Part shown: one piece after another, positions 19,079-56,511 of the stretch
Layout: each line of letters begins with the position of its first letter
Numbering within the stretch: position 1 is the stretch's first letter
Source of the DNA: Terribacillus halophilus
GTDB taxonomy: Bacteria > Bacillota > Bacilli > Bacillales > Amphibacillaceae
Assembly (NCBI RefSeq): GCF_900162685.1
Contig: NZ_LT727828.1
Location: forward strand, 832,824-896,823
Reading direction: 5' to 3'
Length of the DNA stretch: 64,000 bases
Notes under the pieces: generated by a model
What the model was told of the DNA's origin: nothing
What the model saw: only the letters and a program-made list of their open reading frames with translations
Database searches by the model: none
Made by a program: the position numbers and the translations under genes

Positions 19079-19512
19079 CTTGGAACAAAACAAGATTAAT
19101 TCATCCTAAAAGCGAACGATGACTAGATTCATACTTTGCAGCCCTCTGACCTGCTGCTTTCTTACTATAGCTGTTATCGTCGGCCAAGAGTGGCTTTTGA
19201 ATTTGACACCGAGAAGTAAATCGCTATACTTTTTCGAGGAGTCTACGTATTCTGTCTACACTAGTGAATGTTTCCCATGAAAAAATCAGCGTAGGAAATA
19301 CACGGAGACTCCCGCGGGAGGAAGGCTAGGTTAGACCCCGCAGTGCGCTTTTTGCACGAGGAGGCTCACCAGCCGCCCGCAGGAAAGCGGAGTGTATTTC
19401 CGAAGCGATGCTCTCGTCCTCCTTTTCAATGCAAAAAATCCAAACAATGCTGCTGTTAAGTGCAGTATTGTTTGGATTTTTAAATAGCTTAAACAGTTAT
19501 GTCCCAGCCTCC
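19079..19512 (-). repeat. Structured intergenic repeat, long copy (R1)
   Basis: Reading the minus strand it begins GGAGGCTGGGACATAACTG, then an ATCCAAAC hairpin (19437-19478), then a GC-rich core closed by GGAAATACAC/GTGTATTTCC (19294-19303 with 19392-19401), then a tail ending near GATGAATTAATCTTGTTTTG. It aligns along its whole length with the copy at 33.8 kb. It fills the space between the convergent shikimate-dehydrogenase-like and chemoreceptor genes; the hairpin at 19437 probably ends the latter. No coding frame with an RBS is present. Confidence 0.8.
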
Positions 19513-19537
19513 TTCTTTGTTTTAAATCATAATTTTG

Positions 19538-21544
19538 TTATGACAATTTAAATTGCTGCAGCTGTTCTTGAAGCGTATTGGAATCTGCTTCTAGTTTTTC
19601 AGCGAGTTCTTTCAATTGTTCCATTGATTGGCTTTGGTCCGCTACGGAAGCCGTGATCTCTTCTGTGCCGGCAGCCGTTTCCTGGCTGATTGCTGAAATT
19701 TCACCAGTATTTGTTGCGAGCGTTGCTTCCCGTTCCATCATGGACTTCATTTCTTCCTTCGTTTGTGCAGTCAGCTCCATATTGTGGGCGATTGCCTCTT
19801 GGATCTGAATGAAGATTTCTTTCGTACTATTTACAGCCGTTTCCTGGCCTCTTACTACGTCACCAGTTTTGGAAGCGAAAGCTGCTGTTTCAGCTGTTTC
19901 CGATTGAATCTCTTGTACGATAGATGCTATATCACGTAATGCTGTTTCCGTTTGTTCTGCTAGCTTGCGAACTTCATCTGCTACGACAGCGAAGCCTTTT
20001 CCGCTTTCACCAGCACGTGCTGCTTCAATTGCTGCATTAAGAGCGAGCAAGTTCGTTTGCCCAGCGATGTCGGTGATCGTATTCACAATACCGCCAATAT
20101 TGCTGGATTTCTGCTGCAGACTTTTAACAGCTGCTTCGATCTTACCAGTAGCTTCAATAGCATCCTTCGATTGCACGATTAAGTCTTGCATTTGTGAGCC
20201 ACCGACTTTAGCAGACTCGGTCATAACAAGCGCTTCTTCGTACACTTGCTGATTGTGTGCTTCTACTAATTTTATATTCTGAGAGAGAGCCTCTGTTGCA
20301 ACGGCATTGCGTTCCATGATTTCTGCCAAGCTTTGCGTCCCAGCCGAAATCTCTTCCATTGTTGCTGCTACTTCACTAGACGTTGCAGCGTTTTCTTCCG
20401 CATTAGCAGACAAAGCTTGGGATGCAGATTGCACATTAGCAGAAATCTCAGTATTGTGCTGCATCATGCCGTGTATGTTGCCAATCATTGTATTGAAGCT
20501 GTTTGATAGGTCGCCAATCTCGTCATTGGATTTTGTATCCATTCGAACAGTCAGGTCACCATCTTCTACATGCTTCATCTTATCGCGAAGTGCCCGAATA
20601 GGTCGTACGACAGAATTGACGACGAAGAATGTAACAAGAATTGCTATTGCAAGAACGACAAGTACGGTGATTACAAGGGGTAGGATGATCCCGCTTGCTA
20701 AGTCGCTGAATTCTTTTGTCGGTACAATTGCTGCAATTGTCCAGCCAGTGCGGTCATTTGTTGTAAAGGCTAGTGCGCGATTTTCGCCTTCGAATTCATA
20801 ATGGACAATTCCAGAGCGACCTGAAGCCATCATTTTTTCCCAGAAGTCATTTTCCGTCGCATCTGTTCCTAGATACTCTTCATTCGGATGAGAAAGGAAA
20901 TGACCTGAGGAATCAAAAGCAACAGCATAGCCTGTCTCTGCTACCTGCACTTGCTCGGTAAGCTTTCTCAATGAAGAAAGTTTAAATTCAACAATCAGCA
21001 TTCCTTTTAACTGGTTGTTATTGTCAAAGATAGGCTGAACCGCATCGACGACTTGTTCGCCTGTGGTTTTTGATACATATGGGTCCGTGTAGCCGGGTTT
21101 TTCTTGTAGCTCTAAACCAAGTTTGTACCACGGTCGTGTTGTTGGGTCAAAGTCCTCCGGAAGAGCAGTTTCTGGATAAGATAGCATTTCTCCATCAATT
21201 GGCTGATAGAAAAGTGACTCGATATTGTCATTATCTTTTGCATAACTTTCTAATGTTGCAGCCAATCTGTCCATATTGTTATTTCGTAGTGATTGCATCT
21301 TACTAATGCTGTCCAGACTAGATTCAATATTCTCAAGGAATAAGTCGTAAATACTGTTTAACTGCACAACAGTTTGATCTTTCATTTGTTCTGTCTGAGA
21401 TTCCAGCATCGTCGTGCGGCTGAATTGGTAACCGAAATAGGCAGTTGCGAGTCCTGATAAAATAAACATCGCAACAATCGGATAAATGATCTTGCGTAAA
21501 ATTTTTCGGGTAAAGAAATTACCTCTCTTTTTTGTTTCTTCCAT
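19538..21544 (-). CDS. Methyl-accepting chemotaxis protein
   Basis: 668 residues. A first membrane segment (~15-37) and a second (~285-308, [24 protein letters not shown]) bracket an extracellular ~245-residue region typical of a double-Cache (dCache_1) domain ([58 protein letters not shown]). A HAMP linker ([24 protein letters not shown]) follows, then a long coiled-coil signalling domain whose hairpin tip [37 protein letters not shown] is nearly invariant in the family. It senses a small external ligand, often an amino or organic acid, and controls CheA. The ligand is unknown; B. subtilis McpA/B/C and TlpA have the same architecture. A sigma-D-like promoter lies upstream. Confidence 0.93.
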
Positions 21545-21590
21545 ATATATCTTTTATTCCTCTCTGTGCTGTATTACTGGCTACACATTA

Positions 21591-21618
21591 TTATCGGTAG
21601 GAAGAAAGGAATATGTAG
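21591..21618 (-). promoter_or_regulatory. Sigma-D-like promoter of the chemoreceptor
   Basis: On the minus strand CTACA (21618-21614), 15 bases, ACCGATAA (21598-21591). The Bacillus flagellar sigma-D consensus is CTAAA-N15/16-GCCGATAT. Two to three mismatches, right spacing, right gene class. Confidence 0.5.
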
Positions 21619-21773
21619 TACATTTTAGCTATAAAATTCATTTAAAAAAGAAGATAACGCTTTCTAATGAGATTTATATTAAATTCTTTATTTCTTTTGG
21701 AAAAATTGGAAGAGACTAGGCAAAACGTATAGAGTCCGTTATGATAGAAGAAAATGCTTAGGGGACATGAGCT

Positions 21774-22997
21774 ATGGAGTTATTCGATCGTGTTTTATCC
21801 ATTAACGATTTGGATGCTGTCATCGATTTGCTAAGCTTTGAGCTGGAAAGACCGGTGATCGTTGAAAGTGCCGATTATACCTTGCTAGCGTACAATTCGC
21901 ACTATATACACCATTTTGATGACGCGAACCAGCAGACAATATTCACAAAGAAATGGACGCTGCCAATTTACGAAAGATTTATTGAGGCAGGGATTGTGAA
22001 TAAGCTGAAAACATACGAACGCCCATTCACCGTTTTGGCAATGCCGGAGATTGGGTTGAATACACGTATTGTTGTGAGTGCCAAGCATAAAGAACGTGTT
22101 ATGGGTTATGTCTGGATACAGGAAATGGAGCAGCCGCTGTCAGCATCAGATGTTAATTTTCTTTATGAGATTTCTTTCCATATTGGTCGGCTGATTTATG
22201 ATATCCAGAAGTCGAAGTTAAAACAGGAAGAAAAGGAAGATCGTTTTTATCAAAATATTTTCAATAATTTGTATAAACGCTCTTCTGATTTAGAGTGGGG
22301 GGCAAAGGAATTTGGTGTTGTACTGCCAAATTATTTTGCTGTTGCAGCTGTTGAACTGCCGCAGCAGGATGAGCAGCTGCTGTATGATTTGCAGCAAGTA
22401 GCTCAAACGACACTTCAGCTCGAGGATAAATTACACCACGTGCTCATCAAGGATGATACGTTATTAATCGTCCATGGCGGTAAGAAAGCTGATGCACCGA
22501 TTGAAGCATTAGCTAGGGAAGTCATTCAAAGGATCCGCGATTATGCGAAGGATAAAGGAGCTTGTATCCTTAGCGGTGTTGGAAGTGTGTACAGCGACTC
22601 GATTGCGATGTTAACAAGCGCGGCGCAGGCAAGAGAAGTTATTCAAGCAATGAAATTAACCCATCGGCCAGTACCGTTGTATTATAAGGATCTGCATATT
22701 TACCGTTATCTGCAAGCAATATCCGATAAAAATAAGGAACTTGACTATGAAAGTGAAGATCTAAAAAAGATACAGAAGCTGGACCCAAATGATAAAAAAG
22801 AGTTACTAAAAACGCTGGAACTGTACTTGCTGCATAACTGTAAGATCAAGCCGACTGCCGCAGCTCTTTTTGTTCATCCGAATACAGTCAATTACCGAAT
22901 TAATCAAATCAACGAAGCATTACAGCTGGATATGACAGACGTCATGCAAAAATTTCAACTGCTTCTGGATTTGATGACGAGAAGGAAGGATTGCTAA
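21774..22997 (+). CDS. PucR/CdaR-family transcriptional activator
   Basis: 407 residues; ATG with GGGGACATGAGCT upstream, so the RBS is only moderate. The N-terminal ~150 residues form a sensor-like domain (ELERPVIVESADYTLLAYNS, later RVMGYVWIQE), the middle is a GGDEF-like CdaR domain, and the C-terminus is the PucR helix-turn-helix: LLKTLELYLLHNCKIKPTAAALFVHPNTVNYRINQINEAL. B. subtilis PutR, which activates putBCP on proline, has this architecture and length, so this is a candidate regulator of putBC 9 kb upstream; the link is inference only. It stands alone, and its stop codon lies inside the stem of its own terminator. Confidence 0.8.
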   Translation: MELFDRVLSINDLDAVIDLLSFELERPVIVESADYTLLAYNSHYIHHFDDANQQTIFTKKWTLPIYERFIEAGIVNKLKTYERPFTVLAMPEIGLNTRIVVSAKHKERVMGYVWIQEMEQPLSASDVNFLYEISFHIGRLIYDIQKSKLKQEEKEDRFYQNIFNNLYKRSSDLEWGAKEFGVVLPNYFAVAAVELPQQDEQLLYDLQQVAQTTLQLEDKLHHVLIKDDTLLIVHGGKKADAPIEALAREVIQRIRDYAKDKGACILSGVGSVYSDSIAMLTSAAQAREVIQAMKLTHRPVPLYYKDLHIYRYLQAISDKNKELDYESEDLKKIQKLDPNDKKELLKTLELYLLHNCKIKPTAAALFVHPNTVNYRINQINEALQLDMTDVMQKFQLLLDLMTRRKDC

Positions 22998-23026
22998 TAA
23001 CACACAATCGTTATTAGGTTTTTTTG
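22994..23026 (+). terminator. Terminator overlapping the pucR-like stop codon
   Basis: CTAATAAC (22994-23001) pairs with GTTATTAG (23010-23017), followed by G and seven T. Confidence 0.85.
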
Positions 23027-23175
23027 TACGGTGCTCCGGCCCAGCTCCGGCAGAATACTTCGCTTTCCGCGGGCACGGCCTCAGCCTCCTCGCGGAAATT
23101 TCGCCGCTGCGGGGTCTTCGACCCGCGCTGTTCCCGCTGGAGTCTACGTATTCTGCCTACGCTATTTTCGTTTTC
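23026..23175 (+). repeat. Structured intergenic repeat, short copy (R3)
   Basis: The core is closed by GGCAGAATAC (23049-23058) and GTATTCTGCC (23148-23157), a perfect 10-bp inverted repeat 109 bp end to end, with inner hairpins TTTCCGCG/CGCGGAAA and GGGTCTTCGACCC. It is almost identical to the 56.4-kb copy and structurally equivalent to those at 19.3 and 33.9 kb. A 70-codon frame across it is not a gene. Confidence 0.85.
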
Positions 23176-23249
23176 CTACATCAAAGCAATTAGCACAAAT
23201 TAGCGGCGTGATATTTCCCGAAGCAGTTTCCTATACTCTATAATGGAAT

Positions 23250-23297
23250 AAATCCAAACGATACTGTTATTAAAATACAGAGTCGTTTGGATTTTTT
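23250..23297. terminator. ATCCAAAC-type hairpin, probably bidirectional terminator
   Basis: AAATCCAAACGA pairs with TCGTTTGGATTT, with CTG/CAG continuing inside the stem; a T run follows on the plus strand, and an AAATAAATT-like flank gives some T on the minus strand. It lies between the convergent pucR-like and Rap-like genes. Confidence 0.65.
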
Positions 23298-23348
23298 CTT
23301 GGCTCAATACCATCCTGCAAATCTATATCAGGTTCTATTACGTCCTTT

Positions 23349-24410
23349 TCACTGAAATTCGTTTGATAAGGATAATTTATGATAGTAAGGGAATGTGTCA
23401 CTTTGCTGTGTATCCCAAAGATGTTGCGAATAATCACGTGCGTGTGTGCGCATTAGGTGAAATAAGCCGTGTTCTTTAAAGTAGGGGATGGCTGCACCAT
23501 ATACGTCATTCATGCTGTTATGATCGATATATTTCGACCATAATATGGCGAATTGCCAGTAATACTCCTGGTTGTTCCTCTCCTCACACACTTCTATCCC
23601 TGTTCGGTAATAACTCTCCGCTTCTTCTGTTCGTTCCAGAATATAAAGCGAACGTGTTAATGTGTACAGTGCCTGGATGTATAACGGATGGTCAGGGTAT
23701 TCGATGGCCTGCTGCAAATAAGAGATACCTTTCGCATCTGCTTGCTGTTTATGATACATAAGTCCAAGATTGAATTGGCATACAACAGCCAAATCTTCTT
23801 GACCTTCGCTTGCAGCAATAGACAATGCTTCTACAAGATTGGTTTCTGCCTTTTCAAATTCCCGCAAGTCAATTTGATTTAAACCTTGCAGGGACTTGCA
23901 GTTCGCCACCTTCAGTTTATACGTTGGATTCTTCTCATATATAGCGATTGCTTTTTCCAAATGAAAACTGGATAACGCATTGATATCCAAGTAATAGAAT
24001 TGCATCGCTTTATTATAATGCAGTCCGGCATGTTCGTCCTCGTCGTTAACTGCGTGCATATAACTTTCCGCTTTTTCAAAAAGGTCGACTGCAGCAAGGT
24101 ATTCTTTTCTATGAAACTTTACAAGGGCCAGGAAACAATAATAGAAAAAGGCTTGAAGATCAAACAACTTATCAGGCTGAAGCTGCAAAAGTTTTTCTTC
24201 AGCAAGCACTACATGGCCCATCAATAAATCATACCTTGCATCCAGCAGCAAATAGCCGTTCCATGCGACATCTTTAAAATCACCAGCTTGTAAAGCAGCA
24301 TACACTTCTTCACGAAGATTGGCTGATTTACTCCGATTACGTGATTTTATTGTCTTATGCCAATTCCGCATGAGGCTAATCAATTGTTCCGTACTTTCCA
24401 TAACAGCCAT
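23349..24410 (-). CDS. Rap-like tetratricopeptide-repeat protein
   Basis: 353 residues; the ATG has AGGAGT eight bases upstream. The N-terminal three-helix bundle (ESTEQLISLMRNWHKTIKSRN) followed by ~6 TPR units (AGLHYNKAMQFYYLDINALSSFHLEKAIAIYEKN, LQGLNQIDLREFEKAETNLVEALSIA, AVVCQFNLGLMYHKQQADAKGISYLQQAIEY) is the layout of Rap phosphatases and RRNPP regulators. In B. subtilis these dephosphorylate Spo0F or block ComA/DegU and are antagonised by a small Phr peptide. No phr-like ORF follows on the same strand; the next 90 bases hold only a terminator. It may be an orphan Rap or be controlled by a peptide encoded elsewhere. Confidence 0.75.
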   Translation of the reverse strand: MAVMESTEQLISLMRNWHKTIKSRNRSKSANLREEVYAALQAGDFKDVAWNGYLLLDARYDLLMGHVVLAEEKLLQLQPDKLFDLQAFFYYCFLALVKFHRKEYLAAVDLFEKAESYMHAVNDEDEHAGLHYNKAMQFYYLDINALSSFHLEKAIAIYEKNPTYKLKVANCKSLQGLNQIDLREFEKAETNLVEALSIAASEGQEDLAVVCQFNLGLMYHKQQADAKGISYLQQAIEYPDHPLYIQALYTLTRSLYILERTEEAESYYRTGIEVCEERNNQEYYWQFAILWSKYIDHNSMNDVYGAAIPYFKEHGLFHLMRTHARDYSQHLWDTQQSDTFPYYHKLSLSNEFQ

Positions 24411-24611
24411 ATGTAGTTACTCCTAGTAGTTTAATATGCTGGACGGCTCATTTAGTGAGTCAAGGCAGAGAAGAACAAAGCTACTGTTGGAGTTAAACAG
24501 CTTTGTGACCGTCCCGATAGAATACAGTTAGTTTACCATATCATATTCTTTTACCGATTATTAAAGTGAATAGTTAGTGAAGGTGTTCGTAATAAAAGAT
24601 TAGACATTTTT

Positions 24612-24669
24612 ATTTAAATGTCTAGACATTTAAATTTTTAGAGGTATAATACATTTGAAAGCGCTTTAA
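24612..24669 (+). promoter_or_regulatory. Operator palindrome, promoter and cre box of the beta-glucoside operon
   Basis: A perfect 24-bp palindrome (24612-24635) with centre ATGTCTAGACAT overlaps the -35 (TAGACA, 24623); -10 is TATAAT at 24645. TGAAAGCGCTTTAA (24656-24669) fits the CcpA cre consensus except one position. The TCTAGA-centred palindrome is the type bound by HutC-subfamily GntR proteins, such as the one encoded at the end of this operon. Confidence 0.65.
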
Positions 24670-24694
24670 TAAAATTTAAGGAGTGTTATCTATT

Positions 24695-25009
24695 ATGAAT
24701 AGAATCTTATTAGCCTGCAGTTCCGGTATGTCCACAAGTCTTTTGGTTACAAAAATGCAAGCGTTTGCAAAGTCGATTGATGAGGACGCTGAAATTTGGG
24801 CAGTTGGACAGGAACAAGCGAAGAAAGAGATGGAAAATGCTGATGTTGTATTAATTGGCCCACAAATGAGTTTCTTAAAAGGAGAGCTTGCTGCAGAAGC
24901 CCAGCAATATGGCATCAAAGTCGAAGTAATCGATATGATGGCTTATGGAATGGCAGATGGGGAGAAAGCATACAAACAGGCAATCAGTCTGATAGGAGCA
25001 ACATCATGA
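24695..25009 (+). CDS. PTS lactose/cellobiose-family EIIB
   Basis: 104 residues from ATG 24695 (AAGGAG upstream). It shows [20 protein letters not shown] with the phospho-accepting Cys near residue 8 and the Rossmann-like fold of cellobiose EIIB. It passes phosphate from EIIA to the sugar during uptake through EIIC. The stop overlaps the EIIA start (ATGA), so this is the first gene of a tight B-A-C-hydrolase operon. The locus is distinct from the B-C-A operon at 49.8 kb, and the two EIIB proteins are clearly paralogous. Confidence 0.9.
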   Translation: MNRILLACSSGMSTSLLVTKMQAFAKSIDEDAEIWAVGQEQAKKEMENADVVLIGPQMSFLKGELAAEAQQYGIKVEVIDMMAYGMADGEKAYKQAISLIGATS

Positions 25010-25338
25010 ATGAGTTGAAGATAGAGGAACTGACTAACGAACAAATTTGCTTTCAGATGATTTTGCATAGCGGCAATGCTAGAAGCAAAATTTTGCAGGC
25101 TTTACGACTTTACCGAGAGGGCTCAATGGAGGAAGTTGATAAAATGCTTGTCGATGCGGAAGATGACTTGGCGCTTGTGCATAAAGTACATTTTCAAATG
25201 GTCCAACAAGAAGCTGCTGGAGAACAGCAGCAGTTGTCTCTTTTATTCCTGCATGCAGAAGATCATTTCATGTCGACATTAACCATGAAAGAAATGATTA
25301 AAGAGTTGATACCAATCTTTCAACAAATGAAGGGATAA
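25006..25338 (+). CDS. PTS lactose/cellobiose-family EIIA
   Basis: 110 residues, overlapping the EIIB gene by four bases. All-helical EIIA of the lac family: QICFQMILHSGNARSKILQALRLYREG, then SLLFLHAEDHFMSTLTMKEM with the phospho-accepting His in LHAEDH. It receives phosphate from HPr and gives it to EIIB. Like the family it should be a trimer, with an Asp-coordinated Mg in the core. Confidence 0.9.
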   Translation: MNELKIEELTNEQICFQMILHSGNARSKILQALRLYREGSMEEVDKMLVDAEDDLALVHKVHFQMVQQEAAGEQQQLSLLFLHAEDHFMSTLTMKEMIKELIPIFQQMKG

Positions 25339-25352
25339 GGGAGGAAACAGTC

Positions 25353-26681: not shown

Positions 26682-26682
26682 T

Positions 26683-32435: not shown

Positions 32436-33758
32436 ATGGAGATCTATCTTTTATCTATGACCTTATTAGCTATCGTTATTGTTATTATCGGTGTTACAGT
32501 TTTCAAATGGCATGCTTTTATCAGCTTAACTGTCGCAAGTCTTTTCCTGGCCATCACGGCAGGTCTTTCATTCGATGAAATTGTAAAAGCTTATGAAACA
32601 GGCGTCGGCGGCGTGCTTGGCCACCTTGTCGGTATTCTGGCATTAGGAACGATACTTGGTAAAATGATGGCTGATTCTGGTGCGGGTAATCAAGTGGCGA
32701 ATTTCTTTGTAGACAAGTTCGGACCAAAAAGATTGCCATGGGCCATGTTCTTAGCCGGTTTTATTATTGGTATCCCGGTCTTTTTTGAAGTAGGTATATT
32801 AATCGTACTACCGCTTGTAATCAGTATTTATAAAACGACAAAGCAAAACATTTTGTTGATTGCTTTGCCAGTCATAGCTGGTCTTTCCATCGTGCACGGA
32901 CTTGTTCCCCCGCATCCAGGAGCTCTTGCAGCTATTAGCATTTATGAAGCAGATCTTGGTATGGTATTACTGTACTCCCTCGTTATTGCGATACCAGCTG
33001 GAATTCTTGGCGGTCCGGTATTTGCGAAATGGGTGCATAAGCGGGTCATTCCGCAAGGCGAGCCGAATCTCATTAAAGTGACGCAGCCGGAAAGCACACC
33101 GGGAACAGGCATTAGTTTCTTTGTCATTTTGCTGCCGGTGTTGTTAATGATTTTGTCAGCAGTTGGACCTTACATGAAACTTCCTAATTTGGCAGAAGAA
33201 CTGCTCGCTTTCATCGGAAGTCCATTAGTAGCATTATTGGTTGCGGTCTTTGTAGCTTATTACTTCCTTGGGTTCCGTCAGGGGATGGACCGTGATCGAT
33301 TAAAGAAAATGACAGAAGAATGCATTTTGCCTGTCGGTTCTATCATCTTAATCATTGGTGCCGGCGGCGGATTCAAACAAGTGCTTATCGACAGCGGTGT
33401 TGGTGACACAATTGCACAAATGTCGACGAATTTATCTCTTTCTCCAATTGTGCTGGCATTTCTTGTTGCTGGTCTGATCCGGGTTGCGACTGGATCTGCG
33501 ACTGTGGCGCTGACCACAGCGGCAGGTATTGTATCGCCAATCATTACCCACATGAGTGGTGTGAATTTGGAGTTGCTTGTCATCGCAACAGGAGCGGGTT
33601 CGCTTATGTTATCTCATGTCAATGACGCCGGTTTCTGGATGGTCAAAGAATATCTGGGCTTAACAGTGAAAGAGACATTCCGAACATGGACAGTGCTGGA
33701 GACCATTCTTGCATTTGTTGCTTTTGGCGGCGTATTGATTATGGATCTCTTTGTTTGA
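32436..33758 (+). CDS. gntP: Gluconate permease, GntP family
   Basis: 440 residues from ATG 32436 (GAGGGG upstream; earlier in-frame starts lack an RBS). About 12 membrane segments. Family motifs include LGTILGKMMADSGAGNQVANFFVDKFG, FLAGFIIGIPVFFEVGILIVLPLV, GLVPPHPGALAAI, ILIIGAGGGFKQVLIDSGVGD and GSATVALTTAAGI, ending GSLMLSHVNDAGFWMVKEYLGLTVKETFRTW. It is a proton-coupled gluconate importer in the cytoplasmic membrane. Last gene of the operon; the next terminator-like hairpin (33814) lies in a repeat element. Confidence 0.92.
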   Translation: MEIYLLSMTLLAIVIVIIGVTVFKWHAFISLTVASLFLAITAGLSFDEIVKAYETGVGGVLGHLVGILALGTILGKMMADSGAGNQVANFFVDKFGPKRLPWAMFLAGFIIGIPVFFEVGILIVLPLVISIYKTTKQNILLIALPVIAGLSIVHGLVPPHPGALAAISIYEADLGMVLLYSLVIAIPAGILGGPVFAKWVHKRVIPQGEPNLIKVTQPESTPGTGISFFVILLPVLLMILSAVGPYMKLPNLAEELLAFIGSPLVALLVAVFVAYYFLGFRQGMDRDRLKKMTEECILPVGSIILIIGAGGGFKQVLIDSGVGDTIAQMSTNLSLSPIVLAFLVAGLIRVATGSATVALTTAAGIVSPIITHMSGVNLELLVIATGAGSLMLSHVNDAGFWMVKEYLGLTVKETFRTWTVLETILAFVAFGGVLIMDLFV

Positions 33759-33777
33759 TGCATATCTAGTAAACGAT

Positions 33778-34169
33778 ACGAGGCTGAGACATAACTGTTT
33801 AAGCTATATAATGATCCAAACAATACTGCAATTACCTGCAGCGTTGTTTGGATTATTTGCATTGGAAATTTAGATGAGCGCATCGCTTCGGAAATACACT
33901 CCGCTTTCCTGCGGGCGGCTGGGGAGCCTCCGTGTATTTCCTACGCTAATTTTTGTTATGAGAAACCTTCACTAGTGTAGGGAGAATGTGTAGACTCCTC
34001 GAAAAAGATAGCGACTTTCTTGTCGGTGTCTACTTCAAAAGCCATTCCTGTTCGACAATAACAGCTAAAGTTGGAGAGGCAGCAGCCGTCAGAGGGCTGC
34101 ATTAAAAAGTATGGATCCAGTCATCGTTCGCATTTAGGATGAATTAATCTTGTTTTGTCCCAGGCTCGT
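33778..34169 (+). repeat. Structured intergenic repeat, long copy with terminal inverted repeats (R2)
   Basis: Left end ACGAGGCTGAGACATAAC, right end GTTTTGTCCCAGGCTCGT: inverted and agreeing at 15 of 18 positions. Inside are an ATCCAAAC hairpin (33814-33853), a 52-bp core closed by GGAAATACAC (33890-33899) and GTGTATTTCC (33932-33941), and a ~200-bp tail shared with the 19-kb copy (including GACTCCTCGAAAAAG and TTAGGATGAATTAATCTTG). No ORF with an RBS; no clear target duplication. It looks like a non-coding MITE-like element that also supplies the gntP terminator. Confidence 0.75.
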
Positions 34170-48760: not shown

Positions 48761-48778
48761 GTCGAAAGGGACGGCAAT

Positions 48779-49660: not shown

Positions 49661-49663
49661 GAG

Positions 49664-49697
49664 AAAACCGGCTGCAGAATTGCATGCTGGTTTTTTA
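49664..49697 (+). terminator. Terminator after the tetR gene
   Basis: AAAACCGGC (49664-49672) pairs with GCTGGTTTT (49686-49694) with one G-T, and the T run continues. Confidence 0.65.
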
Positions 49698-49706
49698 ATT
49701 TAAATA

Positions 49707-49766
49707 CGTTTCCGTTGCGAAACGGCAAAAGACTAGCAGGAAATGTAAACGCTTTCATCGTATAGT
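49707..49766 (+). promoter_or_regulatory. Activator inverted repeat, cre box and -10 of the licBCA-type operon
   Basis: CGTTTC (49707-49712) and GAAACG (49719-49724) form a 6-6-6 inverted repeat. TGTAAACGCTTTCA (49744-49757) is a perfect cre box, and TATAGT (49761) is a -10 without a good -35, as expected for an activator-dependent promoter. The repeat sits where LicR would bind. Confidence 0.6.
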
Positions 49767-49796
49767 AAAAGCAAGAACAAAAAGGGGGATAACGAA

Positions 49797-50108
49797 ATGA
49801 ATATCTTACTTGTTTGCGCCGCTGGCATGTCTACTAGTCTGCTTGTCTCTAAAATGCAGAAAGCTGCAGAAGCTGAAGCAAAGGGTTATCAAATTCAAGC
49901 TGTATCCGCTGATCAGGCGAAAAAACATATTGAACAAGCAGATGTACTGCTGCTTGGACCGCAAATTCGCTATATGCTGCCACAAATGAAAAAGGTAGGC
50001 GCAGAGCGTGGGATTCCAGTGGAAGTAATCAACAGTGTGGATTATGGAACTGGTAATGGAAAAAATGTGCTGCATCATGCTGAATCGCTCGTTGCGAAGA
50101 AGGGGTGA
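49797..50108 (+). CDS. licB: PTS oligo-beta-glucoside EIIB
   Basis: 103 residues, AAAGGGGGAT upstream. [24 protein letters not shown] with the phospho-Cys near residue 7; otherwise like the EIIB at 24.7 kb but divergent. Its gene order (B-C-A followed by a PRD regulator) matches the lichenan operon of Bacillus rather than the cellobiose-type operon upstream, hence the symbol. Confidence 0.85.
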
Positions 50109-50113
50109 AGAGC

Positions 50114-51448
50114 ATGAGCAAATTCAATGACTTTCTTGAAATGAAAGTGATGCCGTTTGCTGGCCGACTGGCTGCACAGCGGCATCTCGTGGCACTGCGG
50201 GATGGTATTATCCTGACAATGCCATTGATTATCGTCGGCTCCTTATTCCTTATTCTCGGAAACCTGCCAATACCGGGGTATGCCGATTTTATGGCGAATA
50301 TTTTCGGTGAGTCGTGGAACACGAAGCTGCAGTACCCGGTAAATGTCACGTTTGATGTGATGGCGATTTTTGCTTGTTTTGGTATCGCGTACAGATTGGC
50401 GCAAGCTTATGAATCAGATGGTGTAGATCCCTTATCTTCAGGTGCCATCGCTTTGGCGGCCTTCTTGCTGGCAACACCATTCAGCCCGTTTGAAGTAGAA
50501 GGTGCTGCAGCTAATTTCGTGCCAGTTTCCTTACTCGGAAGCGGCGGTTTGTTTGTCGGAATGCTTGTAGCTATGCTTGCTACAGAAGTATATCGTTTCA
50601 TTGTGAAACGGAATATCGTTATCCGGATGCCAGACGGTGTGCCGCCAGCGGTATCTCGGTCATTCATAGCACTTATTCCTGGTTTTGCTGTTATCATCCT
50701 TGTTTGGCTTATTCGATTAGCTGTCGAAGCAACGCCATTTGGTGATATTCATAATTTGATTTCGACAGTTATAGGCTCGCCGCTAACGCTCGTTGGTACT
50801 TCTTTAATCGGCAGTATCATTGCAGAACTAATGGTCGTTTTACTATGGGTTTGCGGACTTCATGGTGCCAACATTGTTGGCGGAATCATGTCTCCAATTT
50901 GGCTGAAAGCAACTGCTGAAAACGCAACTGCTTTTGCAGCTGGCCAGGAGCTGCCGCATATTTTCACCGCGCAGTTCTTTGAAGTATTTATTAATGTTGG
51001 TGGTTCTGGTGCCACGTTAGGCTTGGTGCTGATGATGGTCTGGCGAGCGAAGCTGCAGCAAAATAAACAGCTTAGTAAGCTAGCAACTGGTCCAGCGTTA
51101 TTTAATATCAACGAGCCGATTATCTTCGGTTTACCAATCGTATTGAATCCATTAATGATTATTCCATTTGTCACGATTCCGATTTTAATGGTTATTACAA
51201 CCTATGTCGGGATGAGTTTAGGATTAGTGGCAAAACCTGCTGGTATCGTAGTTCCTTGGACAATGCCGCCGATCATCTCCGGTTACTTGGCAACCGGCGG
51301 GAAACTCTCTGGCGCTGTGATGCAGCTGATCAATTTAGCAATGGCAATGGCGATCTATTATCCTTTCTTCCGCATATTAGAGAAAAACCAGCAGAAAGAA
51401 GAGGAAGCGAGACAACGTGAACTGGCTGCAACGAAAACAGACGAATAA
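50114..51448 (+). CDS. licC: PTS oligo-beta-glucoside EIIC permease
   Basis: 444 residues from ATG 50114 (AAGGGG eight bases upstream). Ten-segment EIIC: RHLVALRDGIILTMPLIIVGSLFLILGNLP, VIRMPDGVPPAVSRSF, WVCGLHGANIVGGIMSPIW, ALFNINEPIIFGLPIVLNPLM, AKPAGIVVPWTMPPIISGYLATGGKLSGAVMQL. Imports beta-1,3/1,4 glucan oligomers or cellobiose in the licheninase system by family precedent. Confidence 0.87.
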   Translation: MSKFNDFLEMKVMPFAGRLAAQRHLVALRDGIILTMPLIIVGSLFLILGNLPIPGYADFMANIFGESWNTKLQYPVNVTFDVMAIFACFGIAYRLAQAYESDGVDPLSSGAIALAAFLLATPFSPFEVEGAAANFVPVSLLGSGGLFVGMLVAMLATEVYRFIVKRNIVIRMPDGVPPAVSRSFIALIPGFAVIILVWLIRLAVEATPFGDIHNLISTVIGSPLTLVGTSLIGSIIAELMVVLLWVCGLHGANIVGGIMSPIWLKATAENATAFAAGQELPHIFTAQFFEVFINVGGSGATLGLVLMMVWRAKLQQNKQLSKLATGPALFNINEPIIFGLPIVLNPLMIIPFVTIPILMVITTYVGMSLGLVAKPAGIVVPWTMPPIISGYLATGGKLSGAVMQLINLAMAMAIYYPFFRILEKNQQKEEEARQRELAATKTDE

Positions 51449-51479
51449 GAAATTCATTTAGCATCCAAAGGAGGCAGCG

Positions 51480-51812
51480 ATGAATATAGAGGAGAAAGCA
51501 TTTCAGTTAATACTGCATGGCGGCGATGGCCGCAGTTACGCAATGGAAGCTATGACACTTGCAAGGCAGCAGAAGTTTGAAGAAGCGAAGCAAAAAATCC
51601 AGTTAAGCAAAGAGGCTATTAATGAGGCACATCATATTCAAACAGAACTTATCACAGCAGAAGCAGGCGGACAGCAATCACAGTTAAGTCTTTTGATGGT
51701 GCATGCGCAGGATCATCTGATGAATGCCATGACGGTCAGAGAAATGGCAGAAGAAATCATTTATCTGCATGATGCATTAGCAAAACAAGCTGCAGCTCGC
51801 GATTCGGTCTGA
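51480..51812 (+). CDS. licA: PTS oligo-beta-glucoside EIIA
   Basis: 110 residues, AAAGGAGG upstream. EKAFQLILHGGDGRSYAMEAMTLARQQKFEEA and LSLLMVHAQDHLMNAMTVREM with the phospho-His in VHAQDH. Completes the IIB-IIC-IIA set. A terminator lies in the 67-base gap before licR. No 6-phospho-beta-glucosidase (licH) is encoded here. Confidence 0.87.
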   Translation: MNIEEKAFQLILHGGDGRSYAMEAMTLARQQKFEEAKQKIQLSKEAINEAHHIQTELITAEAGGQQSQLSLLMVHAQDHLMNAMTVREMAEEIIYLHDALAKQAAARDSV

Positions 51813-51821
51813 GGAATTTTT

Positions 51822-51848
51822 AAGGGCGGTCAACAGATCGCCTTTTTT
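51822..51848 (+). terminator. Terminator after licA
   Basis: AAGGGCGGTC (51822-51831) pairs with GATCGCCTTTT over AACA, with two G-T pairs, then T run. Confidence 0.6.
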
Positions 51849-51879
51849 GCATAGCATAGGGATATGGAGGTGTGGCTTT

Positions 51880-53787
51880 ATGCTGCAGCCAAGGCTTTTA
51901 GAAATATTAACTTTCTTAGCTTCTGAATCAAGTATAAAAACAGCGGAAGAACTGGCAAAAAAACTAGCGGTCTCGGAGCGGACAATTCGCTCCGATATGA
52001 AGGTGCTGCAGCAGGAGCTTGCCGAGGAACTTGCTGTCATCGCCTCGATTAGAGGACAAGGTTATCGATTGATTGTTGCGAATGAGAAGTTATTTCAGCA
52101 GTATTTACAGAAAGAAATTCAAGAAAGGCAAAATTGTCTGTATACAAGAGTGGAGACACCAGCTGAAAGAGTAAATCATCTGCTCCAACTTCTGCTTTTG
52201 TCTGACAGCTATCAGAAGATGGAGGACTTGGCGCAAGCAGTGTTTGTCAGTTTTCCAACGGTGCAAAATGATCTCAAACAAGTGAGAGAAATGCTGCAGA
52301 AGGCAGGGTTGGATTTAGAGAAAAGACCGAAATATGGTATTCGAATTAAAGGAACAGAGACGGAGAAGCGGTATTTCTTATCGGCATTCTTTTCAACTCA
52401 ATCGGGTTGGCAGAAAGGATATAATTTACCCGATGCGATTATATCAGAAAGTGACATTCAAGCTGTCCATAACATCGTGCACCGTTTTGTGACGGATAAG
52501 CAATTCGCATTATCTGATGTAGCGGTGCAAAATTTGGTGACCCATATTGCGATTGCCTGCAGAAGAATCAGAGATAAACAATATGTAGAAATTGCTCCCG
52601 ATGCTTTGCAGGATATGATCCAGCAGCCAGCGTTTCGGGAAGCGGCCCAACTCACTGCTGCACTGGAGGCAGAACTGCATCTGTTCTTTCCGCAAGTAGA
52701 AGTGGCGTATATGACGATTCATTTAATGGGTACAGAGTATGGCGCACAAGGGAATATGCAAACGTACATGGGGATGTCGGACTTAGCAGAAGCAATTGTA
52801 GTCAGGATACATGACAAAACGGGACTGGATCTTCGTCATGATTTGGACTTGCTTCATGGCATGGCGGTACATCTCAAGCCAGCTATTCATCGGCATTTGT
52901 ACGACATGAATGTTCGGAACCCCTTATTGGAAGACATTAAGCAGCATTATCCCCTTGCATTTGAAGCAGCGGTAATCGGTGCATGTGCAGTAGAAGAGGA
53001 AATGGGAATTCAGCTGGCGGTGGAGGAGATCGGCTATCTGGCGCTGCACATTGGCGCTGCTTTGGAGAGGGTGCAGCAAAAAGAGCAGAAGACAAAATGT
53101 TTACTTGTTTGTGCATCGGGACATGGCAGTGCCCAGTTGCTGCGCTATAAATTGCAATCTCTTTTTCCGGATAAATTAGACATTGTTGATACGATTGAAT
53201 ACTACCGTTTGATCTCTACTAAAACGTGGGACGCGGATGTGGTAATCAGCACCGTGCCGATTGAGGCAGATGTATCACCATTGCCAGTCATCCAAGTGCC
53301 AGTTATCTTGGATACGCAAGCAATTGCTAAATTGAAAGCTTTTTTAAAATCCGGTCAGGAGATACGCTACATTCAGCCGGCTTATGTATATCTTCAGCAG
53401 GAATATACGTGCAAGGAAGATGTGCTCGCGCATATGGCGGAGATGTTGGGTAAGGATGGGAAGGTTGGAGAAGGTTTTCTTCATGCGGTGTATGAAAGAG
53501 AGAAGATGGCGCCGACCAGTTTTGGCAATTTAGTAGCTGTCCCGCATCCGATTGAAGCGCAAGTGGAGGAAACGCTGTGGGTTGTTTGCACCTTAAAAAA
53601 GCCAATCGACTGGTCCGGCAAGCCGGTGCGATTTGTCTGTTTGTTATGTATTCAGAAAGATAGCGAAGAAGATTTTACGAGTATGTATCAGCAGCTTGTC
53701 CGAATTATTGAACATCCTGATCATGTACAACGTTTGCTGGAGGCAAGTTCTTATGAAGCCTTTCATCACACACTTGTTTCCATCTAA
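51880..53787 (+). CDS. licR: LicR-type PTS-regulated transcriptional activator
   Basis: 635 residues from ATG 51880 (GGAGG upstream), close to the 641 of B. subtilis LicR. Order: DeoR-like helix-turn-helix (AEELAKKLAVSERTIRSDMKVLQQEL), Mga-like HTH (MEDLAQAVFVSFPTVQNDLKQVREML), two PRDs (~190-400; VTHIAIACRRIRDKQY, LGTEYGAQ-like MGTEYGAQ), EIIB-like module (LLVCASGHGSAQLLRYKLQSLF), EIIA-2 module (APTSFGNLVAVPHPI). Phosphorylation of PRD His by HPr activates it and phosphorylation by EIIA/EIIB of the lic PTS inactivates it. It sits downstream of its targets, with its own start after the licA terminator. Confidence 0.87.
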   Translation: MLQPRLLEILTFLASESSIKTAEELAKKLAVSERTIRSDMKVLQQELAEELAVIASIRGQGYRLIVANEKLFQQYLQKEIQERQNCLYTRVETPAERVNHLLQLLLLSDSYQKMEDLAQAVFVSFPTVQNDLKQVREMLQKAGLDLEKRPKYGIRIKGTETEKRYFLSAFFSTQSGWQKGYNLPDAIISESDIQAVHNIVHRFVTDKQFALSDVAVQNLVTHIAIACRRIRDKQYVEIAPDALQDMIQQPAFREAAQLTAALEAELHLFFPQVEVAYMTIHLMGTEYGAQGNMQTYMGMSDLAEAIVVRIHDKTGLDLRHDLDLLHGMAVHLKPAIHRHLYDMNVRNPLLEDIKQHYPLAFEAAVIGACAVEEEMGIQLAVEEIGYLALHIGAALERVQQKEQKTKCLLVCASGHGSAQLLRYKLQSLFPDKLDIVDTIEYYRLISTKTWDADVVISTVPIEADVSPLPVIQVPVILDTQAIAKLKAFLKSGQEIRYIQPAYVYLQQEYTCKEDVLAHMAEMLGKDGKVGEGFLHAVYEREKMAPTSFGNLVAVPHPIEAQVEETLWVVCTLKKPIDWSGKPVRFVCLLCIQKDSEEDFTSMYQQLVRIIEHPDHVQRLLEASSYEAFHHTLVSI

Positions 53788-53816
53788 AAAGACAGCTTCC
53801 AAATAGGACAGCTGTC

Positions 53817-54083
53817 TTAGTTAGGGGAAGGTTCTACTTGCCCTTTTTGGCGTGCGAGCTTCATATTCGCCCGTTTCGCCATCTTATAAGCGTCATAAAT
53901 ATTGTAAATCCAAAAAATGAAAAAGGTAAACAACCCGACGACAAACCACATTAAGAACAGATTCAGCAGATTGACTAAGACAAAGATTGTACCTTTCAGA
54001 TGCTGCTGATTATAAAACTGGCCCAGACCAGTAAATAGAAAGCTCAACACAGCCGCTATGAGCGGCGTTCTTTTGAATTCCAT
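53817..54083 (-). CDS. Small TM2-like membrane protein
   Basis: 88 residues. It starts MEFKRTPLIAAVLSFLFTGLGQFYNQQHLKGTIF, has two membrane helices joined by a short turn, then FFIFWIYNIYDAYKMAKRANM. The G-x-GQFYN...K..IF pattern followed by a W-IYNIYDAY motif is the TM2-domain arrangement found in small Firmicute membrane proteins. Function unknown. RBS GAGGTGACC upstream; stands alone between the licR end and the next gene. Confidence 0.7.
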   Translation of the reverse strand: MEFKRTPLIAAVLSFLFTGLGQFYNQQHLKGTIFVLVNLLNLFLMWFVVGLFTFFIFWIYNIYDAYKMAKRANMKLARQKGQVEPSPN

Positions 54084-54226
54084 TTGGTCACCTCATCTTT
54101 TTAATACTGTACCAGTTTTCGCAATTGTATACAAATGCGATTCCTGTGTCTTTTTTTAATTATTTTGAAACCCTTTTCATAGATTAGACGTAAGCGTATT
54201 ATTGTAGGAAAGGAAGGGGGAGAAAC

Positions 54227-54583
54227 ATGGATGAACAGCTGCAAGTAAAAGAAACAATTCTTAAAATGGAAAGATTGCTGTTGGCAGATGAAACAAGATT
54301 ATCTACTGACGCGTTTAGTAATCTATTAACAGATGATTTCCTCGAGCACGGCTCGTCAGGCCGCAGTGTCACAAAGAAAGACCTCGTAGCAGACGGTTTG
54401 GGTTCTGTTCAGCTCGATATAAAAGATTTTAATGTGCGCGTTTTGTCTGAGGATACCGTTCTAGCCACATTTCGGACGTACGACACAACTTCTGGTCATG
54501 AACACCTGCGCAGCTCCATTTGGCGTTATCAGCCAGGAGGCTGGCGGATGCTTTTCCACCAAGGAACACCAGCGGAAACATAA
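54227..54583 (+). CDS. DUF4440/SnoaL-like (NTF2-fold) protein
   Basis: 118 residues; GGAAGGGGGAGAAAC upstream. The sequence ILKMERLLLADETRLSTDAFSNLLTDDFLEHGSSGRSVTKKDLV then LDIKDFNVRVLSEDTVLATFRTYD and RSSIWRYQPGGWRMLFHQGTPAE is a cone-shaped NTF2-like fold of the DUF4440 type. Enzymatic or binding role unknown. Its terminator (54583-54614) is shared back to back with padC. Confidence 0.75.
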   Translation: MDEQLQVKETILKMERLLLADETRLSTDAFSNLLTDDFLEHGSSGRSVTKKDLVADGLGSVQLDIKDFNVRVLSEDTVLATFRTYDTTSGHEHLRSSIWRYQPGGWRMLFHQGTPAET

Positions 54584-54614
54584 AAGGCGGCTGCGTTTTA
54601 GCAGACCGCCTTTT
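54583..54614. terminator. Bidirectional terminator between the DUF4440 gene and padC
   Basis: AAGGCGG and CCGCCTTTT pair, with CTGC/GCAG continuing the stem around a 6-base loop. Confidence 0.7.
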
Positions 54615-54621
54615 CTATAGT

Positions 54622-55110
54622 TTATTGCAATTTCCCTGCTCGAATGTCGTCTGTCATGCCGGGATAAGGTGCCTCAGCCACAATTTTCTCATTGTTCACA
54701 CCAGCTTGGTGATGGTATGTGATATCCGCGAATTCCGGTACTACATGTTTCGGATACGTATCATATTTCTCACGGGATTCATGCATAAGGTCAATATGGT
54801 CATTTTGATAGCAGACTGTAATTTCTGGATGTTCATGCACCCATTTAGGAAAGAAGATGATACCATGCATTCTTTTCTCGTTTGGCATGAAATTTAATGA
54901 TACATCAGTGCCAGTAGGTTCAGTCCAAGAAACTTTGTAGACACCTTGGGTTAGTTTAACCAGATCGACTTTCTGATCTTTCACCCAGCGTCCGCCAACC
55001 ATACCGCTATGAATCCGATAATCGATTGTATCTTCATTTTTGATATACATTTCATATTCCCAGCCGTTTTCATACGTATAAATCATATGACTTCCAATAA
55101 ATTCTTGCAT
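54622..55110 (-). CDS. padC: Phenolic acid decarboxylase
   Basis: 162 residues (the family's length is ~161), GAGGAGG upstream. Sequence [44 protein letters not shown] and [40 protein letters not shown] is diagnostic of PadC/FDC-like beta-barrel decarboxylases; the catalytic Glu lies in SWTEPTG and the Tyr pair in [13 protein letters not shown]. It converts ferulate, p-coumarate and caffeate to 4-vinyl derivatives without cofactor, detoxifying phenolics released from plant cell walls. Probably repressed by the divergent PadR; lies 13 bases after a DUF3237 gene. Confidence 0.95.
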
Positions 55111-55123
55111 GTTTTATTCCTCC

Positions 55124-55576
55124 TCAATTTACTTGATAAACTTCCACCAATACTTGATTTTCCAGTCGTGTTGCTGCCCCGATAAATATCTTGTCCATCA
55201 GCCAGTTGTACGTTTCGCTGCCGGTTTCAAAAACCGGGACTGTCCGAAAATACACATGCTCCGGCGGGATGATTTCTCCTTGGGCAGCGCGTTTGCGATA
55301 GGCAGTATCGACTTGGCGTATGCCGTTATTCTCTAAATAAATAATGTCCCCATCTTCTGTTTCAATCAGATAACGAGCAGACAAATCTGTACGTCCGTTC
55401 GGGCGAATGATTTGCGAGTCGGCACCGCCAGGCAAAATACGTCCTTCAATTTTGCCTGTAATGGTTCCGGATTCAATGGGAATCAACCGTCGTAAACCAA
55501 GTCCTGTTTGGCCAGCGCTGACTGGTTGTGCTACATCGATTGTGAGTGTAGCAATCTTCTCTAAATCAGGCTTCAT
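55124..55576 (-). CDS. DUF3237 protein linked to phenolic-acid decarboxylase
   Basis: 150 residues from ATG 55576 (AAAGGG nine bases upstream; an ATG three codons earlier overlaps that site). A beta-barrel protein with [69 protein letters not shown] and [29 protein letters not shown], typical of DUF3237. Function not established, often found beside aromatic-catabolism genes. First gene of the two-gene operon with padC. Confidence 0.8.
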
Positions 55577-55581
55577 CTTGT

Positions 55582-55599
55582 ACATCCCTTTATAGATGT
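55582..55599. promoter_or_regulatory. Candidate PadR operator
   Basis: ACATC (55582-55586) and GATGT (55595-55599) are inverted with an 8-bp spacer. PadR operators are built on ATGT/ACAT dyads. It lies in the only 59-base gap between the divergent padC operon and padR. Confidence 0.5.
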
Positions 55600-55635
55600 T
55601 ATGCTACTGTCAAATCATCAAGAAGGAGACCGTGT

Positions 55636-56181
55636 ATGCGTGTATTAAAATTTGCGATTCTAGGATTGCTGGAACAAGAGAAAATGACTGGCTACGATAT
55701 TACAGCAGCTTTTAAAGGAGCACTCGGACAATTTTGGAGCGCCAAACACAGCCAGATTTATCCGGAACTCAAGAAACTAGTGCTGGAAGAATTAATTGAA
55801 TTTGAAACAGTAATTCAAGGGGAAAAGCTGGAAAAGAAACTGTACAGTTTAACAGCCAAAGGAATAGCAGAGTTAACGGAATGGATCCAACAGGTAGAAG
55901 CAGTTAACGTTTCTCACAAAGATGAATTTATGTTAAAGACTTACTTCATCGCAGCAATGGACAAGCAAGAAGCACAGCAGTTATTTTCGAACCAATTAAA
56001 TAGCCGGCAGCGTAAGCTAGAAGAACTGGAGCAAATCCTAACAGAACTAGAAGCAGAACAAAAAGCCCCCATGCATTTTTCTTCTCCCGAATTTGGCCAT
56101 TATTTAGTACTTACCAGAGCCATTGAACGAGAGAAAGGTTATATACAATGGCTGGAGCGGAGTTTAGCGTTGATGGAATGA
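55636..56181 (+). CDS. padR: PadR-family phenolic-acid-responsive repressor
   Basis: 181 residues, AAGGAGACC upstream. Winged helix VLKFAILGLLEQEKMTGYDITAAFKGALGQFWSAKHSQIYPELKKLVLEELIEFE and LEKKLYSLTAKGIAELTEWI, then the Vir_act_alpha_C coiled-coil helices. Length and motifs equal those of B. subtilis PadR, which represses padC and is released by p-coumarate or ferulate. Divergent from the padC operon. Confidence 0.92.
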   Translation: MRVLKFAILGLLEQEKMTGYDITAAFKGALGQFWSAKHSQIYPELKKLVLEELIEFETVIQGEKLEKKLYSLTAKGIAELTEWIQQVEAVNVSHKDEFMLKTYFIAAMDKQEAQQLFSNQLNSRQRKLEELEQILTELEAEQKAPMHFSSPEFGHYLVLTRAIEREKGYIQWLERSLALME

Positions 56182-56303
56182 TGAAAATAGTCAAGTTATG
56201 AAGAAAGAGGACGCCTTTCTTCGGCAGCTTCTTTCCACACAGTGGACAAGAATCGCTCCAATGGCATGTCAGCATACAATTATTTTCAAGGTGATCAGAG
56301 TCG

Positions 56304-56511
56304 TCTAGAAAACTACATTAGCGTAGGCAGAATACGTAGACTCCAACGGGAACAGCACGAGTCGAAGACCCCACAGCGGTGAAATTTCCGCGAGGAGGCT
56401 GAGGCCGTGCCCGCGGAAAGCGAAGTATTCTGCCGAAGCGGCCGCCTGAGCACCGCATACTAAAAGTAATCGTTCGTTTTTAAAATTGTTTACTATTATT
56501 TTGTCCCAGAC
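56304..56511 (-). repeat. Structured intergenic repeat (R4) overlapping the GH30 3' end
   Basis: The core is closed by GGCAGAATAC (56326-56335) and GTATTCTGCC (56425-56434), 109 bp end to end, almost identical to the 23-kb copy. On the minus strand the element appears to start with GTCTGGGACAAAATAA (56511-56496), like the CTGGGACAWAA ends at 19.5 and 33.8 kb. This supplies the last codons and stop of the GH30 gene. Confidence 0.75.

What the first reader, a model, noticed from the sequence alone, without database searches (positions are those of the whole stretch)
19294..56434. Four copies of a structured intergenic element whose closing stem covaries
Cores at 19294-19401, 23049-23157, 33890-33941 and 56326-56434 are each closed by a perfect 10-bp inverted repeat. 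Two copies use GGCAGAATAC/GTATTCTGCC, two use GGAAATACAC/GTGTATTTCC. The stems differ at four positions, and at all four the opposite base has changed to keep pairing (C-G to A-T, G-C to A-T, A-T to T-A, T-A to C-G). Shared inner features are TTTCCGCG/CGCGGAAA and a GGAGTCT block near the 3' arm. Paired change without sequence conservation implies selection on a folded form, RNA or single-stranded DNA. None has a coding frame with an RBS. Similar GC-rich intergenic repeats occur in Bacillaceae as far as I recall, but I know no assigned function.
Basis: seen in the sequence. Interest (0 to 1): 0.72.

Follow-up and report, generated by a model that had tools for sequence, protein, structure and literature searches.

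The report
Terminator-replacing mobile element carrying conserved hairpin
The repeats are copies of a strongly conserved folded hairpin found in many Bacilli, and in this genome at least two of the four ride inside small mobile DNA elements that have replaced the stop-transcription hairpins of neighbouring genes.

Summary
In detail: all four stems lie at the stated places and the four stem differences are compensated. In 132 distinct copies from named genomes the fold covaries strongly (642 double-change cells against 169 shuffled, 0 of 500). G-T cells exceed A-C cells 53 to 10 in the closing stem, so one strand is the folded one. A GNA/GNA internal loop is kept in 103 of 124 copies. The hairpin occurs in 75 of 299 genomes of the class and is a sub-threshold relative of Rfam tsr24.

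Copies 19294 and 33890 sit inside a 388-436-bp repeat with IS1182/IS1272-type ends. At the orthologous sites sister species have a terminator-like hairpin, which the repeat has replaced with no target duplication visible. Four more loci show the same, one of them a full IS1182 element. The copy at 56326 lies in a worn element of this type; the copy at 23049 has no visible vehicle of its own.

Most likely these are MITEs moved by an IS1182 transposase, carrying a hairpin that acts in RNA at gene 3' ends. The MITE part is well shown; the hairpin's role is inferred.

The parts
19076..19511 (.). IS1182-type MITE, copy 1 (degenerate ..AAAAC-type end TCCTTGGAACAAAAC at the low side, GTTATGTCCCAGCCTC at the high side)
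   Evidence: ends match those of IS1182-family ISs; absent in G002, G006 and G008, where a terminator-like hairpin stands; G003 has an orthologous copy
19289..19407 (+). core hairpin, A type; closing stem 19294-19303/19392-19401
19435..19480 (.). terminator-like hairpin of MITE copy 1
   Evidence: z -7.0; same position as in the five full IS1182 elements that I read
19229..19285 (-). decayed second half-hairpin (GTAGACTCCTCG..) facing the A core, 5' feet together
   Evidence: I4, I5; inspection
33780..34167 (.). IS1182-type MITE, copy 2 (GAGGCTGAGACATAAC ... GTTTTGTCCCAGGCTC)
   Evidence: absent in G002 and G003, where a terminator hairpin with a T run stands
33884..33947 (-). core hairpin, A type, short form; closing stem 33890-33899/33932-33941
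33810..33857 (.). hairpin of MITE copy 2 at the place of the terminator-like hairpin of copy 1
   Evidence: z -6.4
23043..23163 (-). core hairpin, B type; closing stem 23049-23058/23148-23157; no IS1182-type end found in window 22900-23400
   Evidence: not found at the orthologous place in G002 or, by BLAST, G003
56320..56440 (+). core hairpin, B type; closing stem 56326-56335/56425-56434
56499..56513 (.). remaining end (TTTTGTCCCAGACGC) of the worn MITE that holds the 56326 copy; the other end is not recognisable
   Evidence: G008 has a complete MITE with a B core at this site; G005, G007 and G009 have only a terminator hairpin

Best explanation
Shown: the copies at 19294 and 33890 are the hairpin modules of non-autonomous elements with IS1182/IS1272-type ends (MITEs). 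These entered gene 3' ends by replacing the stem-loop of an existing terminator-like hairpin, with no target duplication visible. The elements bring a terminator-like hairpin of their own. The copy at 56326 lies in a worn element of the same type; the copy at 23049 has no recognised vehicle, although G006 has a B core beside an IS1182-type end in the same gene interval. Shown: the ~120-nt core hairpin is a family spread over the class, under selection for the fold of one strand, with freely changing stems and a mostly fixed GNA/GNA internal loop, and it also occurs where no IS1182-type end is visible. Inferred: transposition is by an IS1182 transposase acting in trans (none found in this genome; a sister species has at least 13 matches). 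Inferred: the hairpin acts in RNA made by read-through at the 3' ends of neighbouring genes, as a stabilising, processing or insulating structure that softens the loss of the native terminator.
For: Ends: of 30 IS1182-family loci scanned, 10 have GAGGCTGGGACA-type repeats at both ends (11 or 12 of 12 bases); in 7 of these 10 one end reads ..ACATAAC and the other ..ACAAAAC, as in the repeat. The five ISs that I read have a terminator-like hairpin just inside each end. Replacement: six loci compared, six show it by eye: 19.1 kb, 33.8 kb, two G003 MITEs and one G003 IS1182, and the 56.3-kb site, where G005, G007 and G009 have a bare terminator hairpin and G008 and G002 a MITE with core. Copies: 89 matches in the own genome, 41 places after grouping. 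Sister species G003 has many and at least 13 IS1182 matches. Fold. Gene context: own repeats 16 convergent, 14 tandem, 0 divergent of 30 loci (two of them the same place); named genomes 24, 44 and 6 of 74 clusters, against background gaps 40, 137 and 59 of 236.
Against: No IS1182 transposase in the own genome. Only 18 of 130 cores in named genomes have TGTCCC within 300 bp outward (14% against 4.7% in controls), so most cores there ride something else or have lost the ends; another end motif is as common (CGCAGTTT in 23 of 130, 1.4 expected). The core was found in or near only 3 of 30 IS1182 loci, so it is not needed to transpose. In the one full IS1182 that carries it (G018, 3 of 3 copies) it lies upstream of the transposase start and points away from it, not in the transposase mRNA. 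The copy at 23049 has no recognisable vehicle. No transcript was seen. The G-T excess weakens when all 33 pairs are counted (158 to 89) and in the other alignment (64 to 40 over all pairs, 32 to 12 in the outer helices). It would also fit folded single-stranded DNA of that strand, and the copies are related, so its p-values are optimistic.
Confidence: 0.6

Rival explanations
1. The hairpin is a folded single-stranded DNA substrate of a HUH (Y1, RAYT-like) transposase, a Gram-positive cousin of REP/REPIN elements, with the GNAG foot as the recognition tetranucleotide.
For: GTAG/GNAG at the 5' foot; copies come in head-to-head pairs: 47 of 49 neighbouring pairs closer than 1 kb are divergent, 27-323 bp apart; one strand is the folded one; GTAG-tagged REPs are thought to be moved by RAYTs (PMC3733652, passages).
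Against: No PF01797 match in the own genome; 8 of the 10 genus members examined (own included) have none, yet have the repeats; G023 and G034 have 11 matches each and no PF01797 match. None of 20 loci with longer PF01797 frames, picked by me as RAYT-like, has a BLAST match to the core in the stretch fetched, about 2 kb on each side. The hairpin is ~120 nt, not 20-40. The middle base of the foot is free.
Confidence: 0.14
2. The hairpin is an independently transcribed small RNA gene that uses the MITE as a vehicle.
For: Related to Rfam tsr24, listed there as an S. aureus small RNA; hairpin plus terminator-like hairpin could make a compact RNA unit; conserved fold; in G018 the core points away from the transposase gene.
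Against: No excess of sigma-A-like promoters in the 60 bp upstream: 133 upstream regions, scores no higher than in shuffles. The tsr24 match is below the gathering score. The centres between paired hairpins can be as short as 27 bp.
Confidence: 0.2
3. Paired changes are not selected but come from template switching between the arms of palindromes (quasi-palindrome correction), and the element is inert selfish DNA.
For: Perfect stems in many copies; 8 of 124 copies have the outer loop replaced by full complementarity.
Against: The mismatched GNA/GNA loop is kept in 103 of 124 copies, and the inner CGNAG corners on both sides in 88 of 135 (neither side in 35), which correction would erase; G-T exceeds A-C 53 to 10 in the closing stem.
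Confidence: 0.1

Closest known systems
IS1272 and the IS1182 family (stem-loop-replacing transposition; PMC5678879, PMC4923244: passages read)
   Same: IS1182-family terminal repeats (16 bp in IS1272), replacement of a target stem-loop including terminators, no target duplication
   Different: Our elements are 388-436 bp, have no transposase gene and carry the core hairpin; found here in Bacillaceae-type genomes; the letters of the IS1272 ends were not seen in the passages, the match is to IS1182-family ISs fetched here
Rfam RF02577 tsr24 (S. aureus small RNA)
   Same: Shared AGACTCC..GGAGCAG..CGAAGACC..GGCUGAG..GGAAAGCGAAG order and paired outer stem; 41.3 bits over the full model
   Different: Below gathering score 50; the 19294 copy reaches only 16.9 bits; the model is named for S. 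aureus
REP/REPIN elements and RAYTs (PMC3733652, passages)
   Same: High-copy intergenic palindromes with a GTAG-like foot, often paired head to head
   Different: Much larger hairpin, free middle base in the foot, no linked RAYT found; the word Firmicutes does not occur in that paper's main text
bcr1-bcr18 repeats of the Bacillus cereus group (PMC3446304, passages)
   Same: MITE-like intergenic repeats, some with predicted conserved RNA fold; 40-51% of copies were part of an mRNA in two strains
   Different: Sequence relation not tested here

Membership tests
IS1182/IS1272-type MITE | terminal inverted repeats of the IS1182 subgroup | tested here: met
   GAGGCTGRGACATAAC .. GTTTTGTCCC.GCTC in own copies, one end of copy 1 degenerate; same repeats at both ends in 10 of 30 IS1182 loci
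IS1182/IS1272-type MITE | replaces a stem-loop, no target duplication | tested here: met
   six of six loci compared, by eye
IS1182/IS1272-type MITE | no transposase gene of its own | tested here: met
   no ORF of 80 aa or more inside copies 1 and 2; one of 89 aa (33614-33883, minus) overlaps the end of copy 2 and lies about half in the gntP-like gene
IS1182/IS1272-type MITE | matching autonomous element in the same genome | tested here: not met
   0 hits to NF033551 in G000; at least 13 in sister species G003. So it is filed by ends and insertion mode; the partner is absent from this genome
Rfam RF02577 tsr24 | score at or above gathering threshold | tested here: not met
   41.3 bits against 50; 0 matches at threshold in the window or in 10 distant loci
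REP/REPIN with RAYT | fixed GTAG-type foot | tested here: not met
   GNA with N free, 15 of 16 N:N combinations seen in 103 copies
REP/REPIN with RAYT | RAYT gene flanked by the repeats | tested here: not met
   0 of 20 RAYT-like loci
rho-independent terminator | U tract right after the stem of the core hairpin | tested here: not met
   core stem is mostly followed by CGNAGCG, not T
bcr repeats | sequence match to bcr1-bcr18 | not tested
   sequences not at hand

The most novel reading that the evidence does not exclude
A class of mobile elements that seeks out transcription terminators, cuts out their stem-loop and installs in its place a package of its own terminator plus a conserved RNA hairpin, so that dozens of unrelated genes come to share the same 3'-UTR regulatory or stabilising RNA; the hairpin itself is an ancient Bacilli-wide RNA that has used several vehicles.
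Probability: 0.3. Interest if true: 0.82.

Novelty: new variant of a known kind. Interest (0 to 1): 0.62.

Why it matters
It ties a widespread structured repeat of Bacilli, unnamed as far as my searches went, to a concrete insertion chemistry (stem-loop replacement), here in a miniature form with clean before-and-after sites. If the hairpin works in RNA, terminators of many genes have been swapped for one mobile 3'-end module, which makes the question of what such repeats do to mRNA ends directly testable. It also suggests that tsr24 may belong to a Bacilli-wide repeat family rather than being a staphylococcal oddity.

Tried and rejected
Rejected: Rfam families other than tsr24. RAYT/HUH linkage. 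Phage origin: no match in the phage collection for the A core (the B core was not searched there). Own promoter upstream of the hairpin: no excess; the promoter-like site at 19203-19230 (34 such sites found, 33.2 expected) lies next to the decayed second half-hairpin and I give it no weight. The first alignment of 18 repeats mixes orientations, because loci come in genome orientation; I used it only to read the ends. I first took the core in the G018 IS to lie after the transposase gene; one search showed that it lies before it and points away, and the report is mended accordingly. Positional conservation in one other family (L163, L164, L167, L170) was looked at and not pursued. The centres between paired hairpins show no clear common sequence by eye.

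Searches for prior description. I saw the listed rows only (20 of 56; 15 of 236; 12 of 318; 12 of 517). None of the listed papers is on tsr24 in S. aureus or on an IS1182 MITE with such a hairpin; one (PMC13340242, one passage) names tsr25 and tsr33. Subscription papers are not in that library, so absence from print is not claimed. The genus of the window's genome was not found; named genera come.
Full report
What is in the window. Each hairpin folds far better than shuffled sequence (z -3.7 to -4.4, 0 of 200 shuffles each). Two copies (19294 +, 33890 -) are the middle of a longer repeat found as an inverted pair. In the own genome that repeat gives 89 matches at 41 places after grouping (the grouping script merged one place each of two contigs, which I count as two); 18 of them were near full length (about 390-440 bp). 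The other two (23049 -, 56326 +) are a sister type with three long matches in the genome and weaker partial ones.

The hairpin family. With the repeat as query, 37 of 61 genomes match, own included; in the listed rows outside the own genus the match is only around the core (query about 206-341). A model built from 30 copies finds it in 75 of 299 genomes of the class, own included (stricter filters, at most 12 candidates scored per genome). Plasmid-collection hits add Priestia, Radiobacillus and Planococcus; phages gave none for the A core.

Evidence for a selected fold. In 30 copies, 98.0% of cells pair and 18 of 31 pairs have a double change, against 7.9 in shuffles (0 of 500). The structure came from these sequences, so one search is the better test: 135 model hits in 80 named loci, 132 distinct, 642 double-change cells against 169 shuffled, covariation score 0.414 against 0.140; slid structures pair 34-51%, the true one 95%. 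That alignment is fitted to the model and leans to it, and copies are related. In the closing stem G-T cells outnumber A-C cells 53 to 10, and 71 to 12 over the three outer helices; over all 33 pairs the ratio is 158 to 89, and in the alignment it is 32 to 12 (outer) and 64 to 40 (all). The inner helices are poorly aligned between the two sub-types. A symmetric DNA palindrome would give equal numbers, so the strand that reads GNAG..AGACTCC seems to be the folded one. The closing stem is framed by CGNAG at its four corners. The outer 3x3 loop is GNA/GNA in 103 of 124 copies (those of 132 with three letters on both sides), with the middle base free (15 of 16 combinations); in 8 it is replaced by full complementarity, in 12 one side is GNA, in 1 neither. 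I read this as tandem sheared G-A pairs around a free pair; that is inference, and the motif is stable in DNA too (recalled). Distant copies keep the layout with quite different stems.

Pairs. In the 80 named loci, 47 of 49 neighbours closer than 1 kb are divergent with their 5' feet facing, 27-323 bp apart; 32 loci have a single copy. The own repeat has the same plan, with the second half-hairpin decayed.

The vehicle. The repeat ends in GAGGCTGGGACATAAC on one side and GTTTTGTCCC.GCTC on the other, with variation. Of 30 loci with IS1182-family transposases from relatives, 10 carry the same repeat at both ends, and in 7 of the 10 one end reads ..ACATAAC and the other ..ACAAAAC. The five that I read have a terminator-like hairpin just inside each end; the repeat has one on its ..ATAAC side. 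The own genome has no such transposase; G003 of the same genus has at least 13 matches.

Before and after. The repeat at 19.1 kb is absent from G002, G006 and G008, which have a terminator-like hairpin (GGAGAAGCAC..GTGCTTCTCC, with an A or T run at one foot in G002) at that spot; G003 has the repeat there, by its match pattern with a short core. The repeat at 33.8 kb is absent from G002 and G003, which have CAGAGAAAATCGAATTTCGGTTTTCTCTG plus a T run. Two G003 repeats and one G003 IS1182 likewise stand where G002 (site A), G000 and G002 (site B) or G000 (IS site) has a hairpin; at the IS site G002 has other sequence. At the 56.3-kb site G005, G007 and G009 have a bare terminator hairpin, G008 a complete MITE with a B core, G002 a MITE with a short A core, and G003 and the window worn relatives. 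I saw no target duplication at any of the six; this is by eye on single sequences. It is the mode published for IS1272 (PMC5678879 and PMC4923244, passages).

The 23-kb copy. No IS1182-type end lies in window 22900-23400. At that gene interval G002 has no core and G003 no BLAST hit to it. G005 and G006 have a B core there, in G006 with TGTCCCAGCCTC 44 bp beyond it, so a worn MITE is possible.

Other vehicles. A core lies inside an IS1182 of G018 in 3 of 3 copies, between the end and the transposase start, pointing away from the gene. In named genomes TGTCCC lies within 300 bp outward of 18 of 130 cores (14% against 4.7% in controls), and another end motif recurs about 45-60 bp outward (CGCAGTTT in 23 of 130, 1.4 expected). 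Its role is unknown; in Allobacillus a variant of it abuts a ribosome-binding site at the edge of a single-core insert that Piscibacillus lacks. So the hairpin seems to be a module with several vehicles, not only an IS1182 part.

Context. Own repeats: 16 convergent, 14 tandem, 0 divergent of 30 loci. Named genomes: 24, 44 and 6 of 74 clusters, against 40, 137 and 59 of 236 gaps (simple ORF calls; 12 clusters overlap an ORF of 100 aa or more). This fits insertion at 3' ends.

How it works. Shown: IS1182-type ends, stem-loop replacement, a conserved fold with strand asymmetry. Inferred: transposase in trans; the MITE brings back a terminator; the core acts in read-through RNA at gene 3' ends. 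I found no promoter excess upstream of the core, which speaks against an independent sRNA gene. bcr repeats of Bacillus cereus are a precedent for transcribed MITE-like repeats in UTRs (PMC3446304, passages).

Limits. No expression data were at hand. The Rfam link to tsr24 is below threshold.

Noticed in passing
L337 3147-3267 (also L362, L363): An IS1182-family element of G018 carries a core hairpin between its end and the transposase start, pointing away from the gene, in all three copies.
   Followed up: partly
L220, L223, L230, L239, L290 and others, about 45-60 bp outward of the core: A second recurrent end motif, roughly GTTANGTCGCAGTTTATA, on both sides of some hairpin pairs; could be the terminal repeat of another, unidentified vehicle.
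   Followed up: partly
L235 (Sediminibacillus terrae) and L264 (S. halophilus): Element pair at the orthologous place in the two species but in opposite orientation relative to the flank.
   Followed up: no
window 13591-13861: Tandem imperfect repeats with a spacing of 123-124 bp (segments of 84 and 69 nt, 86% identical).
   Followed up: no
window 56496-56513: The end of the worn MITE abuts or overlaps the 3' end of the endo-1,6-beta-glucanase-like gene and may supply its stop codon.
   Followed up: no
L163, L164, L167, L170: In another family of the class a core copy stands at the same place in four genomes with about 86-90% identical flanks, so some copies are inherited vertically.
   Followed up: partly
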